Shown here piece by piece: positions 5,006 to 35,344 of a stretch of DNA of 64,000 nt. The DNA lies in the NCBI RefSeq assembly GCF_020215645.1, contig NZ_CP084058.1, positions 5,642,001 through 5,706,000 on the forward strand. The letters are read 5' to 3'. A program made the translations under genes and the position numbers. The notes under the pieces are model-generated. The model was not told the DNA's origin. It was given only the letters and a program-made list of their open reading frames with translations, and ran no database searches. The stretch is from Nonomuraea gerenzanensis (GTDB lineage: Bacteria > Actinomycetota > Actinomycetes > Streptosporangiales > Streptosporangiaceae). Numbering within the stretch: the first letter of the stretch is position 1; each line of letters begins with the position of its first letter.

Positions 5006-5074
5006 GGGTGCCTTTCCTGACCGACGGCAAGGGCATCGCCGACCAGACTTCCCGGCACACCTGTCACCAACGTA
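5006..5074 (-). promoter_or_regulatory. Conserved 5' leader element, copy A (ArsB/NhaD permease)
   Basis: -10-like TACGTT (5074-5069), 12 nt, then GCCGGGAAGTCTGGTCGGC (5056-5038), then 32 nt to the upstream ORF start. Transcription should begin about 5 nt before the motif, placing it at the RNA 5' end. One of six copies in the window. Confidence 0.7.
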
Positions 5075-5118
5075 TCAAGACGCGCAAGGGCCCGGCACGC
5101 GCGGGGGGGTGCGCCCGG

Positions 5119-5751
5119 TCAGGTGACGAGCGGCAGCAGCGCCGCGTACAGCACCAGCAGCAGGAGCGACTCCCTGCGGCTGAGCCGTTTGCCACGGGCG
5201 AGCAGGGCCCAGGTCAGGCCGCTGACACCGGCCATCGCGGCGATGACGGCCGGCGCCATGGCAGGCGCCGTGGTGCCGGCGACTGCGATGACGGCGCCGC
5301 CGGCCAGGCTGTTGATCAGGTTGCTGCCGAGCAGGTTGCCGACCACGAGGTCGCTGTCGCCGCGCCGCTGGGCCTGCAGGCAGGTGACCAGCTCGGGCAG
5401 CGAGGTGCCGAGCGCGACCAGGGTGAACCCGACCAGATCCGGCGACAGGCCCGCCTCGACGGCCAGCGCCGCGACCAGCCCGGTGACGCCGAGGATCAGC
5501 GTCAGGTTGACGATGTTCGAGCCGACCAGCCCGGCCAGCGCCAGATCGGTCTGCCCGCGCAGGCTCGCCGTGCCGGTGACCACCAGTTCGGGCGCGCTCG
5601 TACCGAATCCGATGACGACCACGCCCACCACGACGGGCTGCAGGCCGAGCCGTTCGGCCAGGCGTCCTGAGCCGAGGACCAGGTGGTCGGCGGCGAGGGC
5701 GAGCACGATCAGCCCCAGCGCGCTGAGCGCCAGCAGGAGCAGCATGCTCAC
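5119..5751 (-). CDS. Na+/Ca2+ exchanger (CaCA) family protein, internally shortened
   Basis: 210 residues against about 310-330 for the family. Both ion-binding alpha repeats are present: GFGTSAPELVV with GSNIVN (residues 48-82), and LGTSLPELVT with GNLLGSNLIN (114-147). The two GTS(A/L)PE motifs are only 65 residues apart, whereas about 160 is normal, so roughly 95 residues, including the spans between repeats, are missing in frame around residues 95-103. Function is doubtful unless it assembles differently. GTG 5751 overlaps the stop of the ABC permease (GTGA), so it is the last gene of that operon; ATG 5745 is an alternative. Confidence 0.75.
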   Translation of the reverse strand: MSMLLLLALSALGLIVLALAADHLVLGSGRLAERLGLQPVVVGVVVIGFGTSAPELVVTGTASLRGQTDLALAGLVGSNIVNLTLILGVTGLVAALAVEAGLSPDLVGFTLVALGTSLPELVTCLQAQRRGDSDLVVGNLLGSNLINSLAGGAVIAVAGTTAPAMAPAVIAAMAGVSGLTWALLARGKRLSRRESLLLLVLYAALLPLVT

Positions 5752-7370
5752 TCTCCCCGCAGGTCACGCCGCTGGAAGGCGGCGACACCGGACAGCACGA
5801 GGAGCACGGTGACGGCGCAGAGCCCGAGCAGCGGGCTCAGGTCCACCGGCCCGCGCAGGGCCTGCGGCACGTGGGTGAAGGGTGACAGGCTCCGGATACG
5901 CTCGTCGAGCTGCAGCAGCTCGCCGAGCTGGGCGAGCAGGGCGAAGGCGAGCAGCGCCGCCCAGGCGAGTGCGGTCAGCCGGGGGAGCAGCCCGAACAGC
6001 AGCATCGCGAGCCCGGCCAGGGTCCAGGTGGCGGGCGCCTGCACCAGCGCCGCGCCCAGCAGCCGCAGGGCCTGTCCCGCGGGTTCGCCGATCCTGACGC
6101 CGTGGGTGATCCCGGCGGCCAGGCCGCTCGCGGCCAGGATCGCGGTGCTGCCGGCCAGTGCCACGCCGAGGTGGCCGGCCGTCCAGCGCCAGCGGGGGAC
6201 GGCGGTGGCCAGGACGGGCTCGGCCCGGATCGCCGTCTCCTCGCCCTGCAGCCGCAGGGTGGCCTGGATCGCGTAGCCACCGGCGACCAGGCCGAGCACG
6301 CTCAGCTCCGCTGCCAGGAACGTGTCGGTCAGCAGGCTCGCGCCGCCGCCGACGCTGGAGAGCAGCTCGGCCAGTCGCGGGTTGTCGCGCACGATGTCGC
6401 CGACGCTGTGCGCCAGCGCTCCGAACAGGGCACCCACGATCGTGAACGCCACCACCCAGCTCAGCAACACGCCGCGTTGCAGCCGCCAGGCCAGCGCGAC
6501 CGGTGCCCGCAGGGAGTCGGCGGCCTCGCGCGGGCCCGGACGCGGCGGCAGCAGCCCGGCCCCGAGGTCGCGCCGTCTGGCCAGGAGAGCCGCCGCCAGG
6601 AGCAGGGCCAGCCCGGTGGCGGCGAACAGGGCGAGCACCCACCACCGCTCACCGGCGAAGGGGCGCACGCGCTGGGCCCAGCCGAGCGGGGACAGCCAGG
6701 ACAGCGCTTCGATCCGGGCCGCGTCGCCGAGGGCGCGCAGCAGGAAGGCCGCGCCGAGGGCCGCGACCGCGATGGCGTTGGCGGTGCGGGCGTGCGCGGT
6801 CACCTGCCCGGCCAGGGCGGCGACGCCGGTGAAGGCCCAGCCGGTGCCGCTCACGGCGGCGCCGAACGCGAGTGCGCCCGCGACCGGCAGCCCCTGCCCG
6901 GCCAGGCCGAGCGTGATGAGCCCGCCGATCAGCAGGTTCGCGCCCGCGGCCACGAGCACCCCGGAGGCGGGCAGCGCGTGCCGGCCGACGGGGCAGGCGC
7001 CGATCAGCTCGGCCCGGCCGGTCTCCTCCTCGGCACGCGTGTGCCGGGTCACCACCAGAGCGCTCATCAGCGCGGCCAGCGCCGAGGCCATCACAGTCAT
7101 CCGCCAGGCGGTCAGCCCGCCGACGGAGGCGGCGTCGTAGACGGGCCCGGTCAGCGCCTGCAAGGCGGGCGCGGCGCCGATGGTGACGCCGAGCGCGATG
7201 CGCTGGGCCGCCTGCGGGTACAGCCCGGCGATGGCCGAGGCGCCGGCGACGACGAGACCGGCGATGACGACGACCCAGGCGGGCAGCAGCAGGCGGTCGC
7301 GGCGCAGCGCGAGCCGCACCAGCGCCTGCGTGCCGGTCATCGCGGGTCGCGGCAGTGCGCGGGCCGTCAT
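5748..7370 (-). CDS. ABC-2 type exporter permease
   Basis: 540 residues with about 12 predicted membrane spans in two halves, for example near residues 20-45, 290-310 and 440-480. The length and double-unit architecture fit the actinobacterial antibiotic/polyketide exporter permeases encoded beside DrrA-like ATPases. ATG 7370 overlaps the ATPase stop (ATGA). A longer in-frame extension upstream would run antiparallel-free through the ATPase gene and is not used. Expected to export a hydrophobic drug or lipid with the ATPase; the substrate is unknown. Confidence 0.85.
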
Positions 7371-8260
7371 GGCGCGACCTGGTAGTGGCGCAGGAACAGC
7401 TCCTCCAGGGTGGGCGGCTGACAGGTCAGCGCGCGTACGCCGGAGTCCGTCAGCAGCCGCAGCGCCCGCTGCAGGTGGTCCGCCTCGACCTGGAAGCGGA
7501 CCTGCGAGCCTTCGACGCTCAGGCCGTGCACCCCCTCCAGCCGGGACAGCTCGCCGGGGACGCGGCCGAGGTCGGCGCTGATCGAGGTGCGGGTGAGGCG
7601 GCGCAGCCCCGCCAGCGTGCCGGTCTCGACGGCGCGGCCGTCGCGGATGATGGTCACCTGGTCGCACAGCGCCTCCACCTCGGACAGCAGGTGGCTGGAC
7701 AGCAGCACCGTGCGGCCCTGCGCGCGCTCCTCGCGGATCGTCTCGCGGAAGGCCGCCTCCATGAGCGGGTCCAGGCCGGAGGTGGGCTCGTCGAGCAGCA
7801 GCAGCTCGACGTCCGAGGCGAGCGCGGCGACCAGCGCGACCTTCTGCCGGTTGCCCTTGGAGTAGGTGCGGCCCTTGCGGGTGGGGTCGAGGCCGAAACG
7901 CTCGCACAGGGCCGCCTTGCGGCGCCGGTCGAGGCCGCCGCGCAGCCGTCCGAGCAGGTCGATGGCCTCGCCGCCGGACAGGGTGGGCCACAGGACGACG
8001 TCGCCCGGCACGTACGCCAGCCGCCGGTGCAGCTCGACCGCGTGCCGCCAGGGGTCGCCGCCGAGCAGCTCGGCGTGCCCGGCGTCGGCGCGCAGCAGGC
8101 CGAGCAGGATCCGCAACGTCGTGGTCTTGCCCGAGCCGTTCGGGCCGAGGAAGCCGTGGACCTCGCCGGTGTGCACGGTGAGGTCGAGCCCGTTCAGCGC
8201 GCGGACGTCGCCGTAGCGCTTGACCAGGCCATGGATGAGGACGGCAGGACCGCTCGCCAT
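7367..8260 (-). CDS. ABC exporter ATP-binding protein
   Basis: 297 residues. Walker [10 protein letters not shown] (39-47), a signature-like YSKGNRQK and Walker [14 protein letters not shown] are present, followed by a C-terminal DrrA-type extension ([37 protein letters not shown], given here as a region of about residues 235-275). It powers the permease at 5748-7370. ATG 8260 directly follows the conserved leader (AGAAAGGCGCCCCC-ATG), with no intervening short ORF. Confidence 0.92.
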
Positions 8261-8333
8261 GGGGGCGCCTTTCTGAAGCCGGTCCGATGTGACGTTGCCG
8301 ACCAGACTTCCCGGCGCTCCACCACCGACGGTA
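8261..8333 (-). promoter_or_regulatory. Conserved 5' leader element, copy B (ABC exporter operon)
   Basis: -10-like TACCGT (8333-8328), 12 nt, GCCGGGAAGTCTGGTCGGC (8315-8297), then 36 nt ending AGAAAGGCGCCCCC at the ATPase ATG. The motif is identical to copies A, D and E. Confidence 0.7.
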
Positions 8334-8401
8334 ACAGTGCCGGATCCGCCGCGCCAGACGTTCGATCGCGTGGCCGCACGATCCTGTCCACGGCGGCGCT
8401 G

Positions 8402-8443
8402 TGCCCTGCTCTCATCGCTCCGGCCGGGTGAGGCCGGTGGCGC
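8402..8443 (-). pseudogene. Remnant of a TetR gene 3' end
   Basis: About 40 nt here match the end of the TetR gene at 37842-38459 with four mismatches. They encode the same last residues (ATGLTRPER, then TGA), and the match runs a few bases past the stop. No upstream TetR sequence is left. It lies immediately 3' of the FAD monooxygenase, which carries an operator like that TetR gene's own, so a monooxygenase-TetR unit probably once stood here. Confidence 0.6.
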
Positions 8444-8453
8444 CCCTCTCCTC

Positions 8454-9599
8454 TCAGCCCGCCAGCTGGAACTTGCGCTCGACCAGCCGGCGCACCGGCC
8501 CCCACGACGACAGCCGCAGCGGAAGCTGGGTCAGCTCCAGCACCAGCGGGTTGCGCGGGGCGTAGACCCCTTTCACGCGGCGGCCGAGCTGCTGTTTCTT
8601 CTCCGCCTCCGGCCGCAGCCCGGCCTCCCACTCCGCCAGCGCGGCCAGGACGTCCTCGCCGTGCCGCTCCAGCGCGGCGCCGAGCCGGTCGGCGCCGCCG
8701 ACGGCCAGCGAGGAGCCGTACCCGGCGAACAGCGTCACGCACCATGCGGCGTCGCCGAGCAGCACGACCCTGCCCTTGCTCCACCGGTCCACCACCATCT
8801 GGCTGATGGTGTCGAAGTAGACGGAGTCGGCCGTTTTCAGCCCTTCCAGGGCTTGGGGGACGAGCCAGCCCATGTCGCCGTAGACGTCGCGCAGCTCCTC
8901 CAGCGGGGTGTCCGCCCGGCCGCCGTCGGTGCGGTAGCCGAAGAAGGCGGCGGTGCGGCCGTCGCCGACGCTCATCAGCGCGAACGTGCGCCCGCCCGCG
9001 CTGATCGAGCCGGTCGTCTCCGGGGGCAGGCCCTGCGGCCGCTGCTTGAGCATGTAGACGGCGACCTTGTGCCCGAGGTCGAGGCGGTAGTCCTCTTCCG
9101 GGCCGAACACCAGCGCCCGCGTCGCCGAGTGCAGCCCGTCGGCGCCGATGAGCAGGTCGGCGTGCTCGGTGGTGCCGTCGCTGAGGGTGACGCGCACCGC
9201 GTCGGCGTCCTGGTCGACGGCGGTGATCGTGGTGGCGAACCGGATCGTGGTGTGGTCGGCGGCGGCCTCGTACAGCACTGCCTCGATGTCGCCGCGCAGG
9301 ATGTTGAACGCCTTTCTGCCCATGGTGGCCGCGATCGTCTCGCCGCTGAGCGCGAAGCGGCGCTCGCCACCGGGCTTGCGGTAGACCAGCTCGCGCGTCA
9401 CGAACGCGCGCCGCTTCAGCTCGGCCAGGACACCCATCCGTTCGGCCCCGTCGTAGCCGATGCCGCCGAACGTCACCCCGTAGCCGCCACCGCGCCGCGC
9501 CGGTGCCCGCTCGATCACCAAGGTGTCCCAGCCTGCCTGGTGCAGCCGCAGCGCTGCGGCGAGTCCGGCGATGCCCGCTCCGATGATGATGGCCCGCAT
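8454..9599 (-). CDS. FAD-dependent monooxygenase (aromatic hydroxylase class)
   Basis: 381 residues from ATG 9599, chosen because AAGGGGGACACGGAG precedes it and the dinucleotide-binding motif [11 protein letters not shown] starts at residue 6. [10 protein letters not shown] (about residue 150) and the FAD-contacting [18 protein letters not shown] (about 280) complete the PHBH-like signature. A flavin hydroxylase acting on an aromatic or polyketide substrate, possibly a drug-inactivating TetX-like enzyme; the substrate is not readable. A 27-bp inverted repeat just upstream (9629-9655) is its likely operator, resembling that of the TetR at 37842. Confidence 0.88.
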
Positions 9600-9628
9600 C
9601 TCCGTGTCCCCCTTCGTTGGTGTGTCTA

Positions 9629-9655
9629 TGAAAACATATCGTAGATTTGTTTTCA
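9629..9655. promoter_or_regulatory. Operator upstream of FAD monooxygenase
   Basis: Perfect inverted repeat TGAAAACA-N11-TGTTTTCA in an AT-rich island 30 nt before the start. The TetR promoter at 38470-38496 holds TGGAAACA-N11-TGTTTTCA, with the same length and arm sequence apart from one base. Confidence 0.7.
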
Positions 9656-9700
9656 CGGTGGTGGTGCGGCCCTGCTCTGGTGGAGGAGCTCCGGCGGTGC

Positions 9701-9766
9701 TAACGTCCGAGTCGGAGCGCCGGGAAGCCTGGTCGGCATTGTCGTCGGCTATGGGAAGAAGGCGCG
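9701..9766 (+). promoter_or_regulatory. Conserved 5' leader element, copy C (Rph-like gene)
   Basis: -10-like TAACGT (9701-9706), 12 nt, GCCGGGAAGCCTGGTCGGC (9719-9737), then 29 nt ending GGGAAGAAGGCGCG at the ATG. The single T-to-C change from the main form lies in the predicted loop. Confidence 0.7.
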
Positions 9767-12199
9767 ATGGAGCTGATCCGGCTGTCTGACACAGATGGCT
9801 CCATGCTCGGCCTCGTGGGCGGCAAGGCCGCCGGGCTGGGCGAGATGATCAAGGCGGGGGAGCGCGTCCCCGACGGCTTCTGCCTGACCGTCGAGTCCTA
9901 CCGGTCGGGGCACCTGCCCGAGAAGGCGCTGGTCGAGGCGTACGAGCGGCTCGGCGGCGGGCGGGTCGCGGTCCGCTCCAGCGCCACCGCCGAGGATCTG
10001 CCGGAGGCCAGCTTCGCCGGCCAGCAGGACACCTACCTCGACGTCGAGGGCGCCGACGAGCTGATCGACGCCGTACGCCGCTGCTGGGGCTCGCTGTTCA
10101 CCGAGCGAGCCGTCGCCTACCGTGCCGCCGCGGGCGTCGGTGACGCGGCCATGGCCGTGGTGGTGCAGCGCATGATCGATCCGGTCGCGGCGGGGGTGCT
10201 GTTCACCGCGAACCCGATCACCGGCTGCCGCACCGAGATGGTCGTCGACGCGGCTCCCGGCCTGGGCACCGCCATCGTCGAGGGCACCGTCGTACCCGAC
10301 CACTACGTGCTCGACCAGCGGCGGGAAGCCGCACCGAACCCCGGCGGCTGCCTGAGCGCGGAGCAGCTCGGCCGGCTGCGGGCGGCCGGGCTGCGGCTGC
10401 AGCAGCACTTCGGCTCGCCGCAGGACATCGAGTGGGCGCTCGACGACGCCGACACGCTGTGGCTGCTGCAGTCCAGGCCGATCACCACGCTCTTCCCGCT
10501 GCCGCCCGACACCGGCGACACGCGGCTCTACCTGGAGTTCGGCCACGTTCAGGGCATGCTCCGCCCGTGCACCCCGATGGGCGTGTCACTGCTCAAGACG
10601 GGCGGAAGCCGGTGGTTCCAGGAGGCGGGAGCCCGGATCGACCGGCGGGACCCGCTGCCCCGGCTCGTGCCGATCGGCGGCAGGCTCTACTTCGACGTGA
10701 CCGACTTCCTGCGCAACACCACCATGCGCAGGCGCATCGGCACGTCCCTGGAGATCTACGGGCCGAGAGTGCAGGGCGCCGTGCTGCGCATGCTCGACGA
10801 TCCGAGGTTCGCGCCGCGCCCCGGCCTGCCCTTCCACCTCGGCAGCGCGCTCAAGGGCGCCGTGCGGATGGTGCCCGCCGGGCTGGTCGGAGTGGTGTCG
10901 AGCCTTTCCGACCCGGTTCGCGGGCGAGCCCGCGCCCGCCGCGGCGTCGCGGAGATCAAGCGGATGATCGTCCCGCCGGGCGCGTCCGCCACGGCCGCCG
11001 AACGGCTGCGCTGGGTCGTCGAGGACTCCCACCGGGGGGTCATGAGCATCGACATGCGCGGGATCCTGTGGCCGCTGGCGGCAGGCCTGATCGCCGGGAC
11101 GATCCCGTCCGCGCTGCTCGAGGGCGTCGCCACGGACGAGGAGCTCGACACCGTCCTCGGCGGCATGCCCCACAACGTGACCACGCAGATGGACCTCAAG
11201 CTCTGGGACCTGGCGGTGCGGGCACGCGCGCACCGCGACCTCTTCCTCGGCACCCCACCGCAGGACCTCGCCGCGAAGTACTTCGCCGGCGAGCTCCCCG
11301 ACATCGGGATGGCCGGCTTCCTGGCCGCCTACGGCATGCGCGCGGCGGCCGAGATCGACGTCGGCGTGCCCCGCTGGAGCGAGGACCCGGCGCCGCTGTT
11401 CGCCACCATCGCCAACTACCTGCGCGTCGAAGACCCCGGCCAGGCACCGGACGCGCGGTTCGAGGCGGCGGCGGCCAGGGCGGAACGGATGATCGAGACG
11501 CTGTCGCGGCGGGCGCGGCTCAGGCGCCCGATCCGCGGCCGGCTGGCGGTGTTCTTCATGCGCCGCTCACGGCAGCTCACCGGGCTGCGGGAGATCGCGA
11601 AATTCGCCTGGCTGCCCGCGATCCAGGCGTGCCGCGAGCAGCTCCTCCTGGCCGGCGCGGACCTGGCCGCCCGCGGCCGGCTGGAGCGCGCCGACGACAT
11701 CATGTTCCTGACGCTGGACGAGGCACGAGCCGCCGCTCACGGCGTGGATCAGCGAGAACTGGCCGTAAGCCGGCGTGCGGAGCACGAGCGGGAGCTGCGC
11801 AGGCGCACCGTCCCGGGCGCGCTGCTGTCCGACGGGACCGACGTGGAGGCGCTCGCACCCGCCGAACCGGCCCAGGACGGCGTGCTGACCGGCATGTCCG
11901 GGGCCGCCGGGCACGCGACCGGCAGGGCGCGGGTGATCCGGGACCCGGCCGGCGCCCGCATCGAACCAGGGGAGATCCTCGTCGCACCCACCACGGACCC
12001 CGGGTGGACGCCGCTGTTCATGACCGCCGCCGGCCTGGTGACCGAGACCGGTTCCCCCGTGGCGCACGGCCCCACCGTGGCCCGCGAGTACGGGATCCCC
12101 GCCGTCATCTGCGTCCGAAACGCGACGAACGAGATCAGGACCGGCCAGTTGATCACCATCGACGGCGCGGCGGGCACGGTGCGGATGGAGCCCGAATGA
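9767..12199 (+). CDS. Rifampicin phosphotransferase-like / PEP synthase-family enzyme
   Basis: 810 residues. The ATP-grasp part shows GLVGGKAAGLGEM (residues 15-27), VAVRSSATAEDLPEASFAGQQDTYLD (about 66-91 as a region) and QSRPITTLFPLP (about 236). A long central segment is followed by the swivelling phosphohistidine domain: TTDPGWTPLF and the His in SPVAHGPTVAREYGIPA (His767). This order and these motifs are those of Rph enzymes, which phosphorylate rifamycins, and of PEP synthase relatives. The central substrate domain is divergent enough that rifampicin cannot be assumed. It is controlled by leader copy C, not by a recognisable rifamycin-associated element. Confidence 0.85.
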   Translation: MELIRLSDTDGSMLGLVGGKAAGLGEMIKAGERVPDGFCLTVESYRSGHLPEKALVEAYERLGGGRVAVRSSATAEDLPEASFAGQQDTYLDVEGADELIDAVRRCWGSLFTERAVAYRAAAGVGDAAMAVVVQRMIDPVAAGVLFTANPITGCRTEMVVDAAPGLGTAIVEGTVVPDHYVLDQRREAAPNPGGCLSAEQLGRLRAAGLRLQQHFGSPQDIEWALDDADTLWLLQSRPITTLFPLPPDTGDTRLYLEFGHVQGMLRPCTPMGVSLLKTGGSRWFQEAGARIDRRDPLPRLVPIGGRLYFDVTDFLRNTTMRRRIGTSLEIYGPRVQGAVLRMLDDPRFAPRPGLPFHLGSALKGAVRMVPAGLVGVVSSLSDPVRGRARARRGVAEIKRMIVPPGASATAAERLRWVVEDSHRGVMSIDMRGILWPLAAGLIAGTIPSALLEGVATDEELDTVLGGMPHNVTTQMDLKLWDLAVRARAHRDLFLGTPPQDLAAKYFAGELPDIGMAGFLAAYGMRAAAEIDVGVPRWSEDPAPLFATIANYLRVEDPGQAPDARFEAAAARAERMIETLSRRARLRRPIRGRLAVFFMRRSRQLTGLREIAKFAWLPAIQACREQLLLAGADLAARGRLERADDIMFLTLDEARAAAHGVDQRELAVSRRAEHERELRRRTVPGALLSDGTDVEALAPAEPAQDGVLTGMSGAAGHATGRARVIRDPAGARIEPGEILVAPTTDPGWTPLFMTAAGLVTETGSPVAHGPTVAREYGIPAVICVRNATNEIRTGQLITIDGAAGTVRMEPE

Positions 12200-12437: not shown

Positions 12438-15400
12438 ATGGTTCAGGCACCGTTCGCTCAGTCACATGCTCAGCAGTTCGGGGGTTACTGGCTCGGCAGG
12501 CAGCTGGGTGCCGGTGGCCAAGGCGTCGTCTACGAGGCTTACGACGGGACCGGCCGGCGGGTGGCCGTCAAGCTGCTGCGTCCGGATCGCGACGTGGACG
12601 CGCGGACGCGCGCGCGATTCGCCAAGGAGGTCGCGGCCACGCGCAAGGTGGCTCCGTTCTGCACCGCGCGGGTCATCGCCGCCGAGCCGGACGCGCCGCA
12701 GCCGTACCTGGTGAGCGAGTACGTCGACGGCCCCAGCCTGCAGCGCGCCGTCACCGAGCTCGGCCCCTTCGGCCCGATCGAGTTGCACAGCCTGGCCACG
12801 GGGGTCGCCACCGCGCTGACGGCCATCCACCGGGCCGGAGTCGTGCACCGCGATCTCAAGCCCGCGAACGTCGTCCTGGGACCCGACGGCCCCAGAGTGA
12901 TCGACTTCGGTATCGCCAAGTTCGAGGGCTCCACCCTCACCGACGCGGGCGTGGTTCCCATCGGCACACCTGCCTACCTGTCGCCCGAACGCGTGCGCGG
13001 TGAGCCCGCAGGCCGTCCGGCCGACGTGTGGGCGTGGGGGGCGGTGGTGCTGTTCGCGGCTTCCGGCGCGCCTCCGTTCGCGGCCGAGACCGCCGCCGCC
13101 ACCTACCAGCTGATCCTCACGCGGCAGCCGGACCTGTTCCCGCTCGACGGCACGCTGCTGCGCCTGGTGGCGGCGGCGATGTCCGCCGATCCCCGCGAAC
13201 GGCCGCGCGCCCAGGACCTGCTGGAGGTCCTGACAGGCGGCGCGGGCGACCTCCTCGTCGCCGGGAGCCAGGCCGCGCGGGCGGCGCGGCGACCGGCGGA
13301 CCTGCCCGCCACCCCCGGCGAGCGTACGCTCGGCGACCTGGCCGAAGAGGCGTACCGGAGATACGACCCGCAGGACCAGGCCCTCCTGCCCGGACTGTTC
13401 CTGCGCTTGGTGCTGCCGGGAGGCACTCCGGAGACGATGCTGCGCCGGGCCCGCCTGACCGACCTGCTCGACGGCTCCGTCGCGCCGGAGCGTGCGGGTC
13501 ACGTGCTCGCCGGCCTGGTCCGCGGCGGCCTCGTTCGCAACGAGGGCGGCGACGTGGCGTTGGCCAGTGCCGCGCTCATCCCGGCCTGGCCGAGGCTGCG
13601 CGAGTGGATCGACGAGGAGGGCGAGGGGCTGGGGCTGCACGCTCGCCTGAGCGGCGCGGCCCAGCGCTGGCAGGCGAGCGGCCGCGACCCAGCGGAGCTG
13701 TACCGGGGCGCGGAGCTGCGGGCCGCGCTGGACCGGCCCTCCGGCAGCAGCGACCGTCTCGTCCTCAACCAGCTGGAACGCGCGTTCCTCGACGCCTCCG
13801 CCACCTATCTGCGGGCGCAGGACCGTCGCCGCCGGCAGGTCACGGCCGTGGTCTTCGTGCTCGCCGCCACCGTGCTCGCCACCGCCTCGATCCTGGTGGC
13901 GCAGACCAGGAGCGAAGGGGCGAACCAGCTGCGGAGCTCGGCCCGGCGTACCGCGGAAACGGCCCAGCGCCTGCGGGCGAGCGAACCCATCAAGGCGATG
14001 CTGCTGAGCGTCGCCGCCTGGCGGCTCGCGCCCGGCGATCCCCGGGTGTACGCGCAGTTGCGCAGCTCGCTGGCGCAGCGTGAGCTGGATGTGTTCCGGC
14101 CGCCCACCAAGCCGGGCGACGCCCGGCACGCCCTCGGCGCGAACGGGAAGACGCTGGCCGTGGTCAACGCGGGCACGGCGACTCTCTACGACCTGGCCAC
14201 GCACCGCGCGCTGCATGTCGTCGGGGGTGTCGGGGACGAGGTGCGGTCCATCGCGCTGCGTCCGGACGGGCGGGTCCTGGCGGTGAGCGGCGACCGGGAC
14301 ATCACCCTGTGGAACCTCGCCTCCGGCCGGCGGATCGGGCGCGCGTTCGGATCGGGCGCCGAGCAACTCGCCTTCGACGCGGGCGGTGACGTCCTCATCG
14401 CCCGGACCGCCGGCGACGCGTGGCAGACCTGGTCGCTCACCCGCGCCGGGACGCCCTCCCTGATCCGGCGCGTCACCCAGGCGACCGAGCTCCAGGTGGC
14501 TCGTGACGCCCGTACCAGCGTCGAGGTGTCACCCACCCGGCGGTACCTGCTGCGCGACCGGCGCGGATCATCGCCGGCCCCGGGCGGTCTCGACCAGGCC
14601 ACGGGGCTGACGGCCGCCTTCAGCCCCGACGGCAAGGTCATGGCGGTCGGGGACGGCCTGGACGCGCGGCTGTGGAACGTGGCACGGGCCCGCTGGTCGC
14701 GCGTGGTGCTGCACGGCGCCAACCCCTTGACCATGTCCTTCAACGCCGATGGACGTTATCTCGCCACCTGGGACGGCACAGCCGTCAGCGTGTGGTCCCG
14801 TACGGGCACCCGGGTGCTGAACCATCCGCTCCCGGCTCTGACCGGTGAGCCCCGCTTCGGGCCCGGGGATCGCACTCTCGTCTGCCTGCTGTCGGACGGC
14901 ACCGCGGTCGTGCTCGACCTGGCCGGCCTGACCCGTTCCGATGCCACCATGACGCCGGGAGCCGCGGCGGCCGCGTTCGACGGCCGGGCCGAGCGCGTGG
15001 CGGTCCAGGGGGCGCGCGCCACCGAACTGTTCCGGACCCGCACACGCGCCGCGGAGCTGCGGCTGAGCCGCGCCGGCGTCCCCGGGGCCGTGCTGGCTTT
15101 CAGCTCGGACGGCGTCTACCTGGCCATGACCACGCCCGACCAGCCCGAGGTGGCCATCTGGAACACGGCCCGGCGACGGCTGGAACGGACGCTGACCATC
15201 GACGCGCCGCAGGTCGCCGGTCTGGCGTTCCGGCCGGGCGGCACCACTCTGGCGATCGCTCCCCTGGGAGAGTCCTGGGGGGACCTGCAGCTCTGGGACG
15301 CCAAGCGGGGAGTCCACCTCGAAACGATCGCGCACCCCGGCGGTGACGGCATGGCATTCGACTCCGCCGGCACCGCGCTGGTCGTCAACGGCGGCGACAA

Positions 15401-15920
15401 CAGCGGAGTGATCGGGCTCTCCCCTCGCCGGCTCCGTCCCCGGCCCTTCGGCCCGGACTCCGACGGGGTGCTGGGGGTGGCGTACAGCCCGGGCAACGCG
15501 ATGATCGCCACCGGCCGCACCGCGCACGGCGTCGACCTGTGGAACGCCACCGATCTGAGCCTCATCCGGCGGCTCGCCGCCACCGACGCGATCTTCGACC
15601 AGTTCCAGGTTCTCGCCTTCAGCCCCGACGGCCGCACGCTGGCGGCAGGCGGCTTCGCGGGCCGGATCTGGCTGTGGAACGTCTCCGACGGCGCACTGCT
15701 CGGAGAGCCGGTCCCGCAGCACGCCGGCCACATCCTGGCCCTGGCCTTCACCCCCGATGGGGGCACCCTCTACAGCCTGGGGGAGGACGGCGCCCTGCGC
15801 ACGCACCCCATCACCGCTTCCGGCCTGGCCACCGAGGTCTGCGCCCGCGCCCGCGCCAGCCTGTCGCCCGGGGAATGGAGCCGCTACATCGAAGATCAGC
15901 CCCCGCGGAGGGTCTGCTGA
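12438..15920 (+). CDS. Ser/Thr kinase - nSTAND-like segment - TM - WD40 fusion
   Basis: 1160 residues. Residues 17-270 form an intact Hanks kinase: GAGGQG loop (24-29), Lys45, Glu64, HRDLKPAN (137-144), DFG (156-158). Residues about 290-455 contain AWPRLREWIDEEGEGL and RDPAELYRGAELRAAL, segments characteristic of the region between the NTPase and WD40 repeats of actinobacterial nSTAND proteins, yet no P-loop is present. One TM helix (about 467-489) follows, then WD40-like blades (for example LAFSPDGRTLAAGGFAGRIW). The kinase should be cytoplasmic and the propeller outside. It probably senses an extracellular ligand or cell-envelope state; substrates are unknown. Confidence 0.88.
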   Translation: MVQAPFAQSHAQQFGGYWLGRQLGAGGQGVVYEAYDGTGRRVAVKLLRPDRDVDARTRARFAKEVAATRKVAPFCTARVIAAEPDAPQPYLVSEYVDGPSLQRAVTELGPFGPIELHSLATGVATALTAIHRAGVVHRDLKPANVVLGPDGPRVIDFGIAKFEGSTLTDAGVVPIGTPAYLSPERVRGEPAGRPADVWAWGAVVLFAASGAPPFAAETAAATYQLILTRQPDLFPLDGTLLRLVAAAMSADPRERPRAQDLLEVLTGGAGDLLVAGSQAARAARRPADLPATPGERTLGDLAEEAYRRYDPQDQALLPGLFLRLVLPGGTPETMLRRARLTDLLDGSVAPERAGHVLAGLVRGGLVRNEGGDVALASAALIPAWPRLREWIDEEGEGLGLHARLSGAAQRWQASGRDPAELYRGAELRAALDRPSGSSDRLVLNQLERAFLDASATYLRAQDRRRRQVTAVVFVLAATVLATASILVAQTRSEGANQLRSSARRTAETAQRLRASEPIKAMLLSVAAWRLAPGDPRVYAQLRSSLAQRELDVFRPPTKPGDARHALGANGKTLAVVNAGTATLYDLATHRALHVVGGVGDEVRSIALRPDGRVLAVSGDRDITLWNLASGRRIGRAFGSGAEQLAFDAGGDVLIARTAGDAWQTWSLTRAGTPSLIRRVTQATELQVARDARTSVEVSPTRRYLLRDRRGSSPAPGGLDQATGLTAAFSPDGKVMAVGDGLDARLWNVARARWSRVVLHGANPLTMSFNADGRYLATWDGTAVSVWSRTGTRVLNHPLPALTGEPRFGPGDRTLVCLLSDGTAVVLDLAGLTRSDATMTPGAAAAAFDGRAERVAVQGARATELFRTRTRAAELRLSRAGVPGAVLAFSSDGVYLAMTTPDQPEVAIWNTARRRLERTLTIDAPQVAGLAFRPGGTTLAIAPLGESWGDLQLWDAKRGVHLETIAHPGGDGMAFDSAGTALVVNGGDNSGVIGLSPRRLRPRPFGPDSDGVLGVAYSPGNAMIATGRTAHGVDLWNATDLSLIRRLAATDAIFDQFQVLAFSPDGRTLAAGGFAGRIWLWNVSDGALLGEPVPQHAGHILALAFTPDGGTLYSLGEDGALRTHPITASGLATEVCARARASLSPGEWSRYIEDQPPRRVC

Positions 15921-24604: not shown

Positions 24605-24605
24605 T

Positions 24606-30150: not shown

Positions 30151-30156
30151 ACCGGC

Positions 30157-30358: not shown

Positions 30359-30431
30359 TAGGGTGGGTGCGGAGCGCCGGGAAGTCTGGTCGGCAAGATC
30401 GTGCACATTGATTCGACCGGAAGGCCGTTCC
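30359..30431 (+). promoter_or_regulatory. Conserved 5' leader element, copy D (cation/proton antiporter)
   Basis: -10-like TAGGGT (30359-30364), 11 nt, GCCGGGAAGTCTGGTCGGC (30376-30394), then 37 nt ending CCGGAAGGCCGTTCC at the short ORF start. Confidence 0.7.
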
Positions 30432-30458
30432 ATGACGACCCCCGCGCGGCGCCCCTGA
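30432..30458 (+). CDS. 8-residue upstream ORF coupled to the antiporter
   Basis: ATG 30432 follows GGAAGG; peptide MTTPARRP; its TGA (30456-30458) shares an A with the antiporter ATG (TGATG). The same layout occurs before the ArsB/NhaD permease and TrkH. Confidence 0.5.
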   Translation: MTTPARRP

Positions 30459-31684
30459 TGGGCGTGCTGCTGACCGCGTTCGCGTGCGTGCTCCTGCTGG
30501 CCGTCCTGCTGTCCGGCCTGGCCCACCGCACCATCCTGTCCACCGCCGCGCTGTTCCTGGTGGCCGGGTTCGTGCTGGGCGACGGCGTGCTCGGCGTCGT
30601 CTCGCTCAAGCCCGGTGACGACCTGGTGGCCACGCTGGCGGAGCTGGCGTTGTTCACCGTGCTGTTCACCGATGGCATGCGGGTCGGCTGGGCCGAGCTG
30701 CGCAGTGCCTGGCGGCTGCCCGGCCGGGCGCTCGGCTGGGGCCTGCCGCTGACCCTGGTCATCACCGCCCTCGGGGCGCACTACCTGCTCGGGCTGGGCT
30801 GGATCGAGGCGCTGCTGATCGGCGCCATCCTCGCGCCCACCGACCCGGTGTTCGCCGCCGCGCTGGTCGGCAACGAGAAGGTGCCGCCCCGGCTGCGGCA
30901 ACTGCTCAACGTCGAATCCGGCGTCAACGACGGCCTGGCGCTGCCGTTCGTCATCCTCTTCCTCGCCGTCGCGGCCGGATCCGACGACCTGCACCTGGGC
31001 GAGCTGGGCCTGGAGCTGGGGCTCGGCATCGTCATCGGGGTCGCCATCCCGTGGGTGGCGATCAAGCTGGAGCAGACCCGCTGGTTCGCCGCCTCCACCC
31101 CGTACGAGCCGCTCAACGCGCTGGCCATCGGCCTGCTCGTGCTGGCCGTCGGCAAGGCCACGCACGGCAACCTGTTCCTGGCCGCGTTCTCCGCCGGCAT
31201 CACGGTGGCCACCTTCGGGCCGCGGCAGCGCGAGTCGTTCGAGCACTTCGGCGAGCTGATCGCCGAGGTGTTCAAGCTCGCGGCGCTGCTGGTGTTCGGC
31301 GCGCTCATCACCCCGGCCCTGCTCGGCTCGGTCGGCTGGCAGGGGTGGCTGTTCGCGGTGCTCGCGCTGATCGTGGCCCGGCCCGTGGCGATCTGGCTGT
31401 CGTTCCTGCGCTCGGGGCTGAGCGTGCGCGAGCAGGCGGCGGTGGCCTGGTTCGGGCCGAAGGGGTTCGCCTCGGTGGTGTACGGGCTGCTGGTGCTGGG
31501 GTCCGGGATCGCCGCCGCCGTTCCGGTGTTCCAGATCGTCGCGGTGACCATCGTGCTGTCGATCCTGCTGCACTCCTCCACCGACATCGTGGTGGCCCGC
31601 TGGTTCGACGACGAGCGGGAGGTTCCGGCCTGGTACGGCACCGTCACCCGCAAGATCCGCCGCCGGGAACGCCCCTTGCAGTGA
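30458..31684 (+). CDS. CPA1-type Na+(K+)/H+ antiporter
   Basis: 408 residues from ATG 30458 with about 12 membrane spans. LAPTDPVFAAAL (about residue 128) and NVESGVNDGLALP (about 150-162, with the ion-binding Asn-Asp pair) are CPA1/NhaP signatures, as is FGPKGFASVVYGL near residue 333. It exchanges Na+ or K+ for H+. An upstream in-frame GTG at 30401 lies inside the leader motif region and is not used; the overlapping short ORF favours 30458. Confidence 0.9.
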   Translation: MGVLLTAFACVLLLAVLLSGLAHRTILSTAALFLVAGFVLGDGVLGVVSLKPGDDLVATLAELALFTVLFTDGMRVGWAELRSAWRLPGRALGWGLPLTLVITALGAHYLLGLGWIEALLIGAILAPTDPVFAAALVGNEKVPPRLRQLLNVESGVNDGLALPFVILFLAVAAGSDDLHLGELGLELGLGIVIGVAIPWVAIKLEQTRWFAASTPYEPLNALAIGLLVLAVGKATHGNLFLAAFSAGITVATFGPRQRESFEHFGELIAEVFKLAALLVFGALITPALLGSVGWQGWLFAVLALIVARPVAIWLSFLRSGLSVREQAAVAWFGPKGFASVVYGLLVLGSGIAAAVPVFQIVAVTIVLSILLHSSTDIVVARWFDDEREVPAWYGTVTRKIRRRERPLQ

Positions 31685-31709
31685 CGAGCGGAGGCGCCAT
31701 GGCGTCCAC

Positions 31710-31862: not shown

Positions 31863-31948
31863 GGGGTGGCGACCACAGCGGCGGTGGCCTCTTCGATCCG
31901 CCGGCCACGGGCCCGGCGGCAGCTGATGCAGTGGCGAGGCTGTCCAGG

Positions 31949-33157
31949 TCAGGCGAGGGTGGTCGGCTCCGGCAGGCGCGGTGGCCGCCATCGCCAGGTG
32001 GCGTTGCCGTCGGCCGTGATGCCCTTGCGCCACAGTGGTGCGGGCATGAGCCGGATCATGGTGACCAGGGCTCGGTGCGCCGCCGCGGAGGTGGTGCGGT
32101 GCCCGTCCGCGCGGGCGCCGCGAGCGGTGGCCTGGGTGCGGGGCCGGCGCTCGGCGTCGTAGCGGCCCAGCGCGGCCTCGATGCCGGGCCCGGCGTGGAG
32201 GGCGGCGGCCAGCACGACCGCGTCCTCGATGGACTGGCCGGCCCCCTGGCCGCGGTCGGGGCTCATCGCGTGGGCGGCGTCGCCCAGCAGCGCCACCCGG
32301 CCACGGACGTACGTGGGCAGCGGGTCCAGGTCCCGGATGTCGATGTGGATCACGGCCTGGGCCGGGGTGGCCGCGACCAGGTCGGGGATCGGGCGGTGCC
32401 AGGCCGCCACGCGGCCGGCCACCTCGGCCTTCTCCCGCTCGTAGCGCAGGTCCGGCCGGTCGGCGGGGGTGACGAAGGCCCAGTAGGCGCGGCCGCGGCT
32501 GACCGGGTGGATGAGGAAGTAGCTGCCCGGGCCCATGGTGACGCTGCCGTCCAGCCCGCCGGGCGGCGTCGGGTGGTCGCCGGGTGAGGTCGCGGAGCCG
32601 CCGGGAACCGCGCTGACGTCCGTGACGCCGAGCCAGGCGGTGCGGCCCAGGAAGCGCGGCGGTGGCGCGTCCGGCCACAAGGCGCGACGCACGGCGCTGC
32701 GGATGCCGTCCGCGCCGATCACCAGGTCCGCGCTCGCCTCGCCGCCGTCCCAGGTGACCGTCACGCCGCGGTCGTCCTGGCGCAGGCCGGTGACCTCCGT
32801 GCCGGTGCGGACCCAGCCGGTGGGCACCGCCTGCAGCAGCAGCCCGTGCAGGTCGGCGCGGTGGAAGGCGAGCATCGGCGTCGGGTCGCCCCGGCGGGCG
32901 CGCTGCAGGTAGCGGCCGTCGGGCAGGCGCAGGTTGCCGGCCGAGTAGGAGGGCACCCCCGTGGCGCGCGCCTGCTCGCCGACGCCGAGTTCGTCCAGGG
33001 CCCGCAACGCGTTGGGGGCCTGCGACATGCCGGCGCCGATCTCACCCAGCGCGGGGGCGCGTTCCAGTACGGTGGCCCGCCAGCCGATCCGCCGCAGGGC
33101 GACGGCCGTGGCCAGGCCGCCGATGCCGGCGCCGACCACGATCGCGTGCCCGGTCAT
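31949..33157 (-). CDS. FAD-dependent monooxygenase (salicylate hydroxylase-like)
   Basis: 402 residues from ATG 33157, which overlaps the regulator stop (ATGA). Motifs: GAGIGGLATAVAL (9-21), a GD-type GADGIRSAVRRAL near 163 and GDAAHAMSPDRGQGAGQSIEDA near 290 (region). These give a PHBH-fold flavin hydroxylase acting on an aromatic ring; the substrate is unknown. Co-transcribed with, and probably controlled by, the MarR/GbsR-like regulator upstream. Confidence 0.9.
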   Translation of the reverse strand: MTGHAIVVGAGIGGLATAVALRRIGWRATVLERAPALGEIGAGMSQAPNALRALDELGVGEQARATGVPSYSAGNLRLPDGRYLQRARRGDPTPMLAFHRADLHGLLLQAVPTGWVRTGTEVTGLRQDDRGVTVTWDGGEASADLVIGADGIRSAVRRALWPDAPPPRFLGRTAWLGVTDVSAVPGGSATSPGDHPTPPGGLDGSVTMGPGSYFLIHPVSRGRAYWAFVTPADRPDLRYEREKAEVAGRVAAWHRPIPDLVAATPAQAVIHIDIRDLDPLPTYVRGRVALLGDAAHAMSPDRGQGAGQSIEDAVVLAAALHAGPGIEAALGRYDAERRPRTQATARGARADGHRTTSAAAHRALVTMIRLMPAPLWRKGITADGNATWRWRPPRLPEPTTLA

Positions 33158-33612
33158 GCGTCCTGCCCGGGAAGGGGCGTGGTCTGGAACATCTTGGCCA
33201 TCCATTCGAAGGTGGTGTGCGCCTGGCGGATGCGCTCGGCGCGCTCGTCGTCCGGCCCGACCAGCTCCAGGCCGTCGCGGGTGATGTCGAGGAAGGAGGT
33301 GAGGCCGGCGATCTGCTTGCGGACCACGACCACCCAGGCGTCCTCGGCCATCCGGTAGTAGACGGTGCGCTCGCCCGGCCGGGTGCGCCAGGTCAGGAAC
33401 CCCATGCCGGACAGCAGCCGCAGGTTCGAGGTCAGCGAAGCGCGGCTGGCGCCGATCGCCTCGCTGATCTGCCCGGCCGACTGCTCCGGCGGGTCGCACA
33501 CCATCAGCCAGCCCAGCACCCGCCCGGCGATCGGCGGCACCCCGTCTCGGGCCAGGTACATGGCCACCCGCTCGACCCATTCCAGCAGCGGATCCTGCTC
33601 GCTCACACCCAC
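33154..33612 (-). CDS. GbsR/MarR-type transcriptional regulator
   Basis: 152 residues. Winged-helix region at about 25-95: IAGRVLGWLMVCDPPEQSAG, ISEAIGASRASLTSNLRLL, GERTVYYRM. This is the GbsR-like subset of MarR regulators. First gene of the operon with the FAD monooxygenase. The inverted repeat at 33622-33649 just upstream is its likely operator. Confidence 0.88.
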   Translation of the reverse strand: MGVSEQDPLLEWVERVAMYLARDGVPPIAGRVLGWLMVCDPPEQSAGQISEAIGASRASLTSNLRLLSGMGFLTWRTRPGERTVYYRMAEDAWVVVVRKQIAGLTSFLDITRDGLELVGPDDERAERIRQAHTTFEWMAKMFQTTPLPGQDA

Positions 33613-33621
33613 TCCTGTTGC

Positions 33622-33649
33622 AGTTGTTTCAGTACAAGCTGAAATAACT
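33622..33649. promoter_or_regulatory. Operator of the GbsR/MarR regulator
   Basis: AGTTGTTTCAG-TACAAG-CTGAAATAACT: 11-bp arms with one mismatch around a 6-bp spacer, 10 bp upstream of the regulator start. It also touches the -10 of the orphan leader copy F on the other strand, so the regulator could control both. Confidence 0.65.
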
Positions 33650-33650
33650 G

Positions 33651-33738
33651 TATCGCGTTCAGGGGTGAGCCGGGAAGTCCGGTCGGCCCGCGTCGCCGGT
33701 CGGCGCGGAGAGGTGGAGGACTTCAGTCAAGGAATCCG
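33651..33738 (+). promoter_or_regulatory. Conserved 5' leader element, orphan copy F
   Basis: TATCGC (33651-33656), 12 nt, GCCGGGAAGTCCGGTCGGC (33669-33687), then GGAGAGGTGGAGG and, after GTCAAGGAATCCG, a GTG at 33739. No gene on this strand follows: the next DNA is the 3' end of convergent trkH (ends 33862). A transcript from here would run antisense into trkH. Confidence 0.6.
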
Positions 33739-33861
33739 GTGACCACCACCGCCACCCAGGCAGTGACCGTCACGCGGACACCGTCCGGTCCAGCGGCGCC
33801 TGCAGCGTCACGGTGCCGAGTGGCCTGGGAAGGCGTGGACCTCGCCGCAGAGGGCCCCGCG

Positions 33862-35214
33862 TCAGCCGAGGATCACCTTTTCCTCCGGCAGTTCGTAGCG
33901 GCGGGTGCGCTGTTTCAGCGCGAGCGCCGAGCCCAGGGTGAGCGGGCCGATGCGGCCGATGAACATCAGCACGCTGAGCAGCACGTGCCCGGCCAGCGAG
34001 GTGTGGGCGGTGATGCCGGTGGACAGGCCGTTGGTGGCGAAGGCGGAGATGGCCTCGAACAGCACCTGGTCGAGGCTGTGCGGAGTGATGATGAGCAACA
34101 GCCAGGTGGAGATCGTGACCAGCATGACGCCGAGCAGGCCGATGGACAGCGCCTGCCGCTGCGTCGCGGAGGGCAGCCGCCGATGGCCGATGTTGACCTG
34201 ATGCTCGCCGCGCAGTTCGGACCAGATGATGAAGAGCAGGAAGCCGAACGTGGTGACCTTGATGCCGCCCGCGGTGCCGGCGCTGCCTCCGCCGATGAAC
34301 ATCAGGACGTCCGTGACGAGCCAGGAGGAGGGGTACATCTGGCCGATGTCGAGGGTGTTGAAGCCGCCGGAGCGCGGCATGACGGCGGTGAAGAAGGCGG
34401 CCAGCAACTTGCCGGAGTCGTCCAGGGGGCCCATCGTGGCGGGATTGCGCCACTCGGTCATCAGGAACGCGAGGGTGCCGGCGCCGAGAAGCAGCGTGCT
34501 CGCGCCGACGGTGATGCGGGTCAGTACGGACCAGCGCCGCGGGTGCCGCCAGGTGCGCAGCAGTTCGAAGACGACCGGGTAGCCGAGACCGCCGACGATG
34601 ACGGCCAGGGCGATGGTCAGGCAGATCCACGGGTCGGTGACGAAGCGCATCAGGTTGTCCGGCCAGAGCGCGAAGCCGGCGTTGTTGAACGCCGACACCC
34701 CATGGAAGACGCCCAGGTAGACGGCCCGGCCCAGCGGCTCGCCGTACCCGGTGACGAACCGTACGGCGAGGACGGCGGCGATGGCCGCCTCGCAGATCAG
34801 GCTGAAGGTCACCACCTTGCGCAGCACGTGCCGCAGATCCGCCGCGACCACCGACTTGGTCTCCAGCTGGGCGGACAGCCTGGCGCGCAGGCCGACCCGG
34901 CCGGAGACGATGACCATGATCAGTGTGGCGAGCGTCATGATGCCCAGCCCGCCGGCCTGGATGAGCAGGACGATCACCACCTCACCGAACACCGACCAGT
35001 GCGTCTCGGTGTCGACCACGACCAGGCCGGTCACGCAGACGGCGGAGGTGGCGGTGAACAGAGCCGTGAGCCAGTGGGAGCTGTCCCCTGCGGTCGTGGC
35101 CAGCGGGGTGCCGAGCAGAAGTGTCCCGATGAGCACTGCCGAGCCGAACCCGGCCGCGATGACCACGGCCGGATGCCGGCCGCGACCCGGCACAGCCGGG
35201 TGGCGCCGCATCAT
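33862..35214 (-). CDS. Trk/Ktr-type potassium transporter membrane subunit (TrkH family)
   Basis: 450 residues with eight or more spans and four P-loop-like selectivity repeats, visible as TSAVCVTGLVVVDTETHWS, SAFNNAGFALWPDN, MPRSGGFNTLDIGQM and FATNGLSTGITAHTS, each carrying the conserved Gly of the K+ filter. KtrB/TrkH proteins need a RCK partner (KtrA/TrkA), which is not encoded in this window. ATG 35214 overlaps the TGA of a 19-codon ORF (ATGA), behind leader copy E. Confidence 0.92.
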   Translation of the reverse strand: MMRRHPAVPGRGRHPAVVIAAGFGSAVLIGTLLLGTPLATTAGDSSHWLTALFTATSAVCVTGLVVVDTETHWSVFGEVVIVLLIQAGGLGIMTLATLIMVIVSGRVGLRARLSAQLETKSVVAADLRHVLRKVVTFSLICEAAIAAVLAVRFVTGYGEPLGRAVYLGVFHGVSAFNNAGFALWPDNLMRFVTDPWICLTIALAVIVGGLGYPVVFELLRTWRHPRRWSVLTRITVGASTLLLGAGTLAFLMTEWRNPATMGPLDDSGKLLAAFFTAVMPRSGGFNTLDIGQMYPSSWLVTDVLMFIGGGSAGTAGGIKVTTFGFLLFIIWSELRGEHQVNIGHRRLPSATQRQALSIGLLGVMLVTISTWLLLIITPHSLDQVLFEAISAFATNGLSTGITAHTSLAGHVLLSVLMFIGRIGPLTLGSALALKQRTRRYELPEEKVILG

Positions 35215-35270
35215 GAGATCACCCGGCGCTGCGGGTCGCCGGACACGCTGACAACGCCGTCATCCATCAT
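35211..35270 (-). CDS. 19-residue upstream ORF coupled to trkH-like gene
   Basis: ATG 35270 preceded by GGAGGCTCCGCG; peptide begins MMDDGVVSVSGDPQRR; its TGA overlaps the transporter ATG as ATGA. Third instance in the window of leader motif, short ORF, then overlapping transporter start. Confidence 0.55.
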   Translation of the reverse strand: MMDDGVVSVSGDPQRRVIS

Positions 35271-35344
35271 CGCGGAGCCTCCGTTCGGTCGCGCGGCCAT
35301 AGACATCGCCGACCAGACTTCCCGGCACTCCGGGCCATACCGTA
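35271..35344 (-). promoter_or_regulatory. Conserved 5' leader element, copy E (TrkH)
   Basis: -10-like TACGGT (35344-35339), 12 nt, GCCGGGAAGTCTGGTCGGC (35326-35308), then 37 nt to the short ORF ATG. Confidence 0.7.

What the first reader, a model, noticed from the sequence alone, without database searches (positions are those of the whole stretch)
5038..35344. A six-copy 5'-terminal leader motif shared by ion-transport, exporter and Rph-like genes
GCCGGGAAGYCYGGTCGGC occurs at 5038-5056(-), 8297-8315(-), 9719-9737(+), 30376-30394(+), 33669-33687(+) and 35308-35326(-). Every copy lies 11-12 nt after a -10-like hexamer (TACGTT, TACCGT, TAACGT, TAGGGT, TATCGC, TACGGT), so the motif should be at the very start of the RNA. 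It is then 29-37 nt to a purine-rich RBS and start codon. Two alternative hairpins are possible: outer GCCG/CGGC, or inner CCGG/CYGG. In copy F the inner G-U pair becomes G-C, a compensatory-type change. Targets are an ArsB/NhaD permease, an ABC exporter, an Rph-like enzyme, a CPA1 antiporter and TrkH. Six widely separated copies in the same promoter-relative position argue for a regulon-wide RNA or promoter-proximal element. I cannot match it to a named riboswitch family; nhaA-I/II, ydaO and Mg2+-responsive classes should be compared.
Basis: partly seen in the sequence, partly recalled or inferred. Interest (0 to 1): 0.9.

Follow-up and report, generated by a model that had tools for sequence, protein, structure and literature searches.

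The report
Actinobacterial 5'-end hairpin on ion-transporter mRNAs
Several genes here are predicted to start their messages with the same 24-base RNA hairpin, which recurs in many actinobacteria, mostly in front of sodium and potassium transporter genes, and matches no catalogued RNA family, so it may be an unknown gene switch for salt balance.

Summary
The motif is real: six exact copies in the window (0.49 expected), eight in the genome. With its free-standing flank it is a 24-nt element, GG[U/A]G[U/C/A]-GCCGGGAAG[N]CUGGUCGGC, found in 49/59 genomes (core), 89/100 of the family and 77/296 of the phylum, with no reversed-control hit in these three. TANNNT lies at -19 to -17 in 139/198 instances, and in 0/198 on the other strand, so the element should be the RNA's first bases. 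Of 133 downstream proteins, 70 are NhaA, 15 Na+/H+ exchangers, 5 ArsB/CitMHS, 4 TrkH. RNA-level constraint: two partner-free searches gave 10 stem variants; the 7 with a -10 in register are all compensated C-G to U-A. The flanking pair is mostly U.G or C.A and avoids Watson-Crick (C-G 2 seen, 29.4 expected). The 3' strand also pairs with the leader near the ribosome site. No Rfam match. Best reading: an undescribed cis-regulatory RNA, perhaps a Na+-type riboswitch. Ligand and direction are inferred; SD accessibility did not resolve them.

The parts
5036..5061 (-). Element copy A (26 nt, predicted RNA 5' end near 5061), U.G flanking pair; leader of the ArsB/NhaD-like permease
5069..5074 (-). 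-10-like TACGTT of copy A
   Evidence: position class tested
8295..8320 (-). Element copy B, C.A flanking pair; leader of ABC ATPase 7367-8260(-)
8328..8333 (-). -10-like TACCGT of copy B
9714..9739 (+). Element copy C, C.A flanking pair; leader of PPDK_N / Rph-like enzyme 9767-12199(+)
9701..9706 (+). -10-like TAACGT of copy C
30371..30396 (+). Element copy D, C.A flanking pair; leader of the cation/proton antiporter
30359..30364 (+). -10-like TAGGGT of copy D
33664..33689 (+). Element copy E, A.C flanking pair; no credible gene downstream (runs antisense to the TrkH 3' end)
33651..33656 (+). -10-like TATCGC of copy E
35306..35331 (-). Element copy F, U.G flanking pair; leader of TrkH 33862-35214(-)
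35339..35344 (-). -10-like TACGGT of copy F
3615..4904 (-). Target: CitMHS/ArsB/NhaD-like permease, from the GTG at 4904 that overlaps the stop of the short leader ORF (the listed ORF, 3615-5060, begins inside the element)
   Evidence: (scanned as 3615-5060)
7367..8260 (-). Target: ABC exporter ATPase (DrrA-like, below model cut-off)
9767..12199 (+). Target: PEP-synthase / rifamycin-phosphotransferase-like enzyme (below the Rph model cut-off)
30458..31684 (+). Target: Na_H_Exchanger family, most like K+/H+ antiporters (below cut-off), from the ATG at 30458
   Evidence: (scanned as 30401-31684)
33862..35214 (-). Target: TrkH potassium uptake protein

Best explanation
An undescribed cis-regulatory RNA of Actinomycetota at the predicted extreme 5' end of mRNAs for monovalent-cation homeostasis. 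SHOWN by comparison: promoter-fixed position and orientation; one hairpin (GCCG/CGGC closing an 11-nt conserved loop) flanked by a strongly preferred U.G or C.A pair; compensatory changes in the stem. SUPPORTED by statistics: the hairpin's 3' strand GGUCGGC is complementary to a later part of the same leader, near the ribosome-binding site, so hairpin and long-range helix exclude each other. INFERRED: the hairpin is an aptamer; a signal, most likely Na+ or a related ionic condition (Li+, K+, pH) given the targets, stabilises it against the long-range helix and so changes translation (or mRNA stability) of the transporter. As the hairpin would be the first thing transcribed, the choice could be made co-transcriptionally. 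My weights: cis-acting RNA about 0.93; riboswitch-type rather than protein-bound about 0.6; monovalent cation or pH as signal about 0.45.
For: Recurrence over the phylum with 0 reversed-control matches. Fixed distance to a -10 in 139/198 and never on the other strand, 0/198. Stem variants searched with the partner left free: U1 always with A17 (5/5, five genera, 1 control match), U2 always with A16 (2/2, 0 control matches); all seven have a TANNNT at -18, while the 3 other matches of these searches have none. Pair count: outer structure 100% paired, covariation score 0.206 vs 0.096 shuffled, 0/500 (variants are over-represented because I looked for them). Flanking pair T-G 90, C-A 55, T-A 12, C-G 2 of 198; Fisher p 3e-28 on those 159; T-G 45, C-A 16, T-A 1, C-G 1 in the first 88 places listed; both states within each of four genomes checked. 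GGUCGGC pairs downstream 0.757 vs 0.523 (120 leaders, p 2e-13) and beats 80/80 sampled permutations (84 leaders). SD-motif pairing 0.40 vs 0.25 (84 leaders, p 3e-7). Targets.
Against: The isolated 26-mer is not unusually stable (z 0.00, -1.00, -0.66), and the minimum-energy fold is the outer hairpin in only one of three. In whole leaders the outer hairpin is predicted at 0.7% (8% with shuffled downstream parts) and costs 9.6 kcal/mol; enforcing it raises SD accessibility in 24/84 and lowers it in 24/84, so no switch direction emerges. CGACC enrichment (64/198) is clear against order-1 and order-2 models (25, 32) but weak against order-3 (49, maximum 65). Longer or other motif segments are less special: 2/80 permutations match segment 8-18, 3/15 match GCCGGG, 38/80 match the 5' half. 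Near-invariance would also suit a protein site. Some targets (Rph-like, ABC, hydrolases, SpoIIE, STAS, DUF998) are not cation transporters. No expression or binding data exist here.
Confidence: 0.62

Rival explanations
1. A protein, not a small ligand, binds the 5'-terminal hairpin (a post-transcriptional regulon): an RNA-binding regulator of Actinomycetota recognises the GGAAGNCUGGU loop and blocks or promotes translation or mRNA decay.
For: Loop and stem hardly vary (4 of the first 88 places listed, where 3 mismatches were allowed, change a core position other than 9 or 11); spread to many unrelated genes, up to 20 core copies in one genome (G007); weak intrinsic stability.
Against: Complementarity of the leader to the 3' strand is not needed by this model, though not excluded. 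I did not search for a candidate protein.
Confidence: 0.25
2. A DNA operator overlapping +1 to +24 bound by a transcriptional repressor.
For: Imperfect dyad GCCG..AG-N-CT..CGGC with a free centre; symmetric double changes are also expected of a dyad operator.
Against: Fixed position and orientation: -10 in register in 139/198, on the opposite strand 0/198; the flanking pair is anti-palindromic (T-A 12 and C-G 2 of 198 against 47 and 29 expected); changed and canonical sites coexist in the same genome (G238 and G410); asymmetric core.
Confidence: 0.06
3. A 5'-terminal stability or transcription-start element (protective hairpin or initial-transcribed-sequence effect) without a specific signal.
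For: Predicted location at +1; hairpin at the very 5' end.
Against: Sequence is more constrained than a protective hairpin should need; target set is functionally skewed (70/133 NhaA).
Confidence: 0.05
4. A repeat or mobile element spread by copying.
For: Clusters: 6 copies in 30 kb here; 10 on one contig of G007.
Against: Flanks of the six window copies differ; compensatory changes; promoter register.
Confidence: 0.01

Closest known systems
Na+-I riboswitch (DUF1646 motif, Rfam RF03071 'Sodium')
   Same: 5' leader RNA in front of cation transporter genes; conserved nucleotides in stem and loop (passages read in PMC9337991).
   Different: [quoted passage not shown] 0 of 41 genomes (this one and relatives) match at E<=1, with filters that lose some weak matches. 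Ours is one hairpin of about 24 nt at the predicted +1.
[quoted passage not shown]
   Same: Most often in front of nhaA (passages read in PMC9646797), as here.
   Different: No Rfam match to them in the window or 20 loci even at E<=5; the word stem 'actinobacteri' occurs 0 times in the paper's main text.
dauA and nqrA-II motifs (riboswitch candidates)
   Same: Leader RNAs of Streptomyces (dauA) or of a Na+ pump (nqrA-II).
   Different: dauA is a three-stem junction with 57 Streptomyces members; nqrA-II has four stem-loops in Pasteurellaceae (passages read in PMC11109978).
ydaO (c-di-AMP), M-box and crcB (fluoride) riboswitches
   Same: Also control ion transporters (recalled).
   Different: No match among all 4227 Rfam families in the window or 20 loci at E<=5.

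Membership tests
Na+-I riboswitch (RF03071) | Match to the covariance model | tested here: not met
   window and 20 loci; 0 of 41 genomes at E<=1
Li+-I / Li+-II riboswitches | Match to the nhaA-I or nhaA-II covariance model | tested here: not met
   neither appears among the 7 and 7 matches listed at E<=5
Li+-I / Li+-II riboswitches | Association with nhaA | tested here: met
   70 of 133 downstream proteins hit PF06965
ydaO, M-box, crcB and other Rfam families | Match to any of 4227 models at the element | tested here: not met
   the only overlap is a sub-threshold ar35 hit (25.1 bits, gathering 45, E 1.1) on the opposite strand that ends 11 nt inside the element of L282
Riboswitch (as a kind) | Conserved structured RNA in the 5' leader with compensatory changes | tested here: met
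Riboswitch (as a kind) | Competing structure linked to SD or terminator (expression platform) | tested here: inconclusive
   competing helix supported; direction of SD exposure not resolved
Riboswitch (as a kind) | Direct ligand binding changes structure and expression | not testable with these tools
   needs in-line probing and reporters
DNA operator of a repressor | Palindromic covariation of half-sites and use in either orientation | tested here: not met
   stem changes are symmetric (which fits), but the flanking pair is anti-palindromic and the -10 register exists on one strand only (139 vs 0 of 198):

The most novel reading that the evidence does not exclude
A new riboswitch class with one of the smallest aptamers known, about 24 nt starting at +1, sensing Na+ (or Li+, K+ or pH) throughout Actinomycetota and coordinating antiporters, K+ uptake, ABC export and stress proteins as one post-transcriptional regulon. 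The preferred U.G or C.A+ pair at the stem base would be part of the ion or proton sensor.
Probability: 0.3. Interest if true: 0.92.

Novelty: new variant of a known kind. Interest (0 to 1): 0.76.

Why it matters
A leader RNA this conserved in many Actinomycetota is absent from Rfam 15. If it is a switch, it would define a salt or pH homeostasis regulon in Streptomyces, Nonomuraea and relatives and give a testable RNA sensor for monovalent ions, of which few are known (recalled). Its 24-nt length and position at the predicted +1 would also make it a minimal control element.

Tried and rejected
Inner CCGG/CYGG hairpin: no two-sided changes. Coding (leaderless GTG) reading: position -3, the middle of that GTG, is A, G or C in about 22%, and among the first 88 places the variable core positions are 9 and 11, not third codon positions. 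Two-tetrad G-quadruplex using the GG pairs: the compensated variants destroy the last GG. Loop pair 6-14: three variants fit (G-C, G-U, U-A) but only one has a -10 in register, and the search for position-6 variants gave 6 matches against 6 reversed-control matches, 5 of the 6 without a -10; so it stays tentative. SD-release model: not resolved. Further left-arm variants listed (90 places, 3 control matches): besides the two compensated ones, five (L309, L310, L370-L372) have no -10 in register and are taken as background. One search used a pattern with one G missing; its zero result is void and the search was repeated correctly, in fewer genomes. One search's enforced-hairpin comparison did not apply the constraint; one search replaces it. 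Viral-contig scan: 74 stretches; 4 with enough flank carry the GCCG core, none with the GG-N-G flank. Literature: sequence strings (one insect paper, unrelated by its title) and topic searches (listings seen) gave no description of it; passages only were read in PMC9646797, PMC9337991, PMC11109978, PMC8632094, PMC2864571 and PMC6429828; the 2017 survey of 224 motifs is not held, and no supplements could be read, so a mention there cannot be excluded beyond Rfam.
Full report
OBSERVATION. GCCGGGAAGYCYGGTCGGC occurs exactly six times in the window, at the stated coordinates (0.49 expected at up to 3 mismatches, 0/100 shuffles reach six), and its 16-base core eight times in the 12.07-Mb genome. 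The window matches Nonomuraea gerenzanensis NZ_LT559118 at 100% over a 101-base test. A covariance model, built with these copies included, separates the six (37-47 bits) from everything else in the window (16.6 bits or less).

EXTENT AND SPREAD. Aligning 143 exact-core instances (4 of them viral-contig stretches) shows that the flank, which was not part of the pattern, is conserved too: GG[T/A]G[T/C/A] before the core, [A/G] after it. That the core itself is nearly invariant rests on searches that allowed change: (up to 3 mismatches in 26 nt) only 4 of the first 88 listed places differ at a core position other than 9 or 11. The core 16-mer is found in 49 of 59 genomes (own genome and relatives), the 26-nt form with up to 3 mismatches in 89 of 100 family genomes, and the exact 24-nt form in 77 of 296 phylum genomes (so 219 lack that exact form), with no reversed-pattern control match in those three calls. 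Of the 80 whose titles were displayed, 63 carry it: 62 Actinomycetota and one Chloroflexi MAG (L064), whose copy has no -10 in register; 11 stretches from other phyla lack it.

POSITION. TANNNT begins at -19, -18 or -17 in 139 of 198 instances, against a mean of 4.3 in seven other three-offset windows and 0 of 198 on the opposite strand. A start 6-7 nt after the -10 puts the first GG at or next to +1. No transcript data were available, so the 5' end is inferred. The median distance from the G at 0 to the chosen start codon is 56 nt (171 instances, 167 with an ORF of 60 aa or more).

TARGETS. Downstream frames were chosen by a base-composition and length score of mine, not from annotation. Of 133 proteins scanned (from 171 instances: those of 100 aa or more from loci up to L171, cut at 260 aa), Pfam hits are NhaA 70, Na_H_Exchanger 15, ABC_tran 7, CBS 6, CitMHS/ArsB 5, TrkH 4, PPDK_N 4, then smaller groups and singletons including Na/Ca exchanger, PP2C, STAS and DUF998 (25 of 28 families shown). 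Of 8 further proteins from motif clusters, 5 hit families: SpoIIE, S15 peptidase, alpha/beta hydrolase, DUF998, STAS. In the window: ArsB/NhaD-like permease, ABC ATPase, PPDK/Rph-like enzyme, cation/proton antiporter, TrkH. The sixth copy (33669+) has no credible gene.

RNA STRUCTURE. I searched for stem variants leaving the partner free. With position 1 not C in 394 class genomes there are 7 matches (1 reversed-control match): 5 have U1, all with A17, in five genera; the other two (A1 and G1, one genus, also A17) have no -10 in register and lie before ORFs that look TetR-like to me by eye. With position 2 not C in 286 genomes there are 3 matches (no control match): two U2-A16 and one unpaired without a -10. 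Thus the 7 of 10 matches that have a -10 in register, all at -18, are all compensated. Counted on 60 sequences (34 distinct), the outer hairpin plus a tentative 6-14 pair is 100% paired, with a covariation score reached by 0/500 shuffles; the inner hairpin has no two-sided change. Those counts include variants I had looked for. In G238 and G410 a compensated and a canonical copy coexist.

FLANKING PAIR. Positions -1 and 19 frame the stem. Among 198 instances: T-G 90 (55.8 expected), C-A 55 (24.8), T-A 12 (47.2), C-G 2 (29.4), A-A 15 (9.5). On the 159 with a pyrimidine at -1 and A or G at 19 Fisher p is 3e-28, or 1e-25 with one instance per locus. The first 88 places give T-G 45, C-A 16, T-A 1, C-G 1. 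Each of four genomes examined, three of them only in part, holds both U.G and C.A copies (own genome: 4 C.A, 3 U.G, 1 A.C), so common descent does not explain it. U.G and protonated A+.C are isosteric wobble pairs (recalled); avoidance of Watson-Crick pairs is not expected of a DNA palindrome.

COMPETING PAIRING. In 120 leaders the 3' strand of the motif pairs with downstream sequence at 0.757 against 0.523 for dinucleotide-shuffled downstream parts (p 2e-13), while the outer hairpin falls to 0.007 from 0.081. In 84 leaders with a clear SD (of 118 in the length range), GGUCGGC binds the leader better than 80 of 80 sampled permutations; segment 8-18 is matched by 2 of 80, the 5' half by 38 of 80. 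SD-motif pairing is 0.40 against 0.25. Overall SD accessibility is not lower than with shuffled spacers (0.43 vs 0.40), and enforcing the outer hairpin does not change its mean (24 up, 24 down of 84). CGACC, the complement, occurs in 64 of 198 leaders (expected 25, 32 and 49 under order-1, -2 and -3 models; order-3 maximum 65). So a competing helix is supported; its effect on translation is not shown.

KNOWN FAMILIES. No Rfam family reaches its gathering score in the window. At E up to 5 none of the listed matches overlaps a window copy, and in 20 further loci the only overlap is a sub-threshold ar35 hit on the opposite strand of L282 (E 1.1). The Sodium family is absent from 41 genomes searched. 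Literature searches found no description (see Tried and rejected).

VERDICT. A genuine, apparently undescribed cis-regulatory RNA of Actinomycetota, most likely a salt- or pH-linked leader switch; ligand versus protein, and direction of control, remain to be tested.

Noticed in passing
window 4901-5005(-), 30432-30458(+), 35211-35270(-): In copies A, D and F the first start codon after the element opens a short ORF (34, 8 and 19 codons) whose stop overlaps the transporter start (GTGA, TGATG, ATGA): likely translational coupling. Copy A's short ORF begins MRARDL, like the CBS-domain proteins at L039 and L087, as if a CBS gene had been deleted.
   Followed up: partly
window 33664-33870(+): Element copy E with a promoter-like hexamer but no credible gene, running antisense to the TrkH 3' end: a relic or an antisense RNA.
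   Followed up: partly
window 1442-3451(+), 8454-9656(-), 31949-33580(-): EF-G-like protein (669 aa) and two FAD_binding_3 monooxygenases near Rph-like and DrrA-like genes: a neighbourhood with several resistance-like genes.
   Followed up: no
L365, L366, L367 (genome G007): Genome with 20 core copies (19 by the model), ten on one contig, some as divergent pairs.
   Followed up: partly
L064:7039-7064: Full 24-nt form in a Chloroflexi MAG contig, but without a -10 in register: chance, transfer or a misbinned contig.
   Followed up: partly
window 12438-15920(+): 1160-aa Ser/Thr kinase with WD40 repeats.
   Followed up: no
window 47331-47662(+): Below-cut-off match to 5_ureB_sRNA (30.4 bits, gathering 40, E 0.0003).
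   Followed up: no
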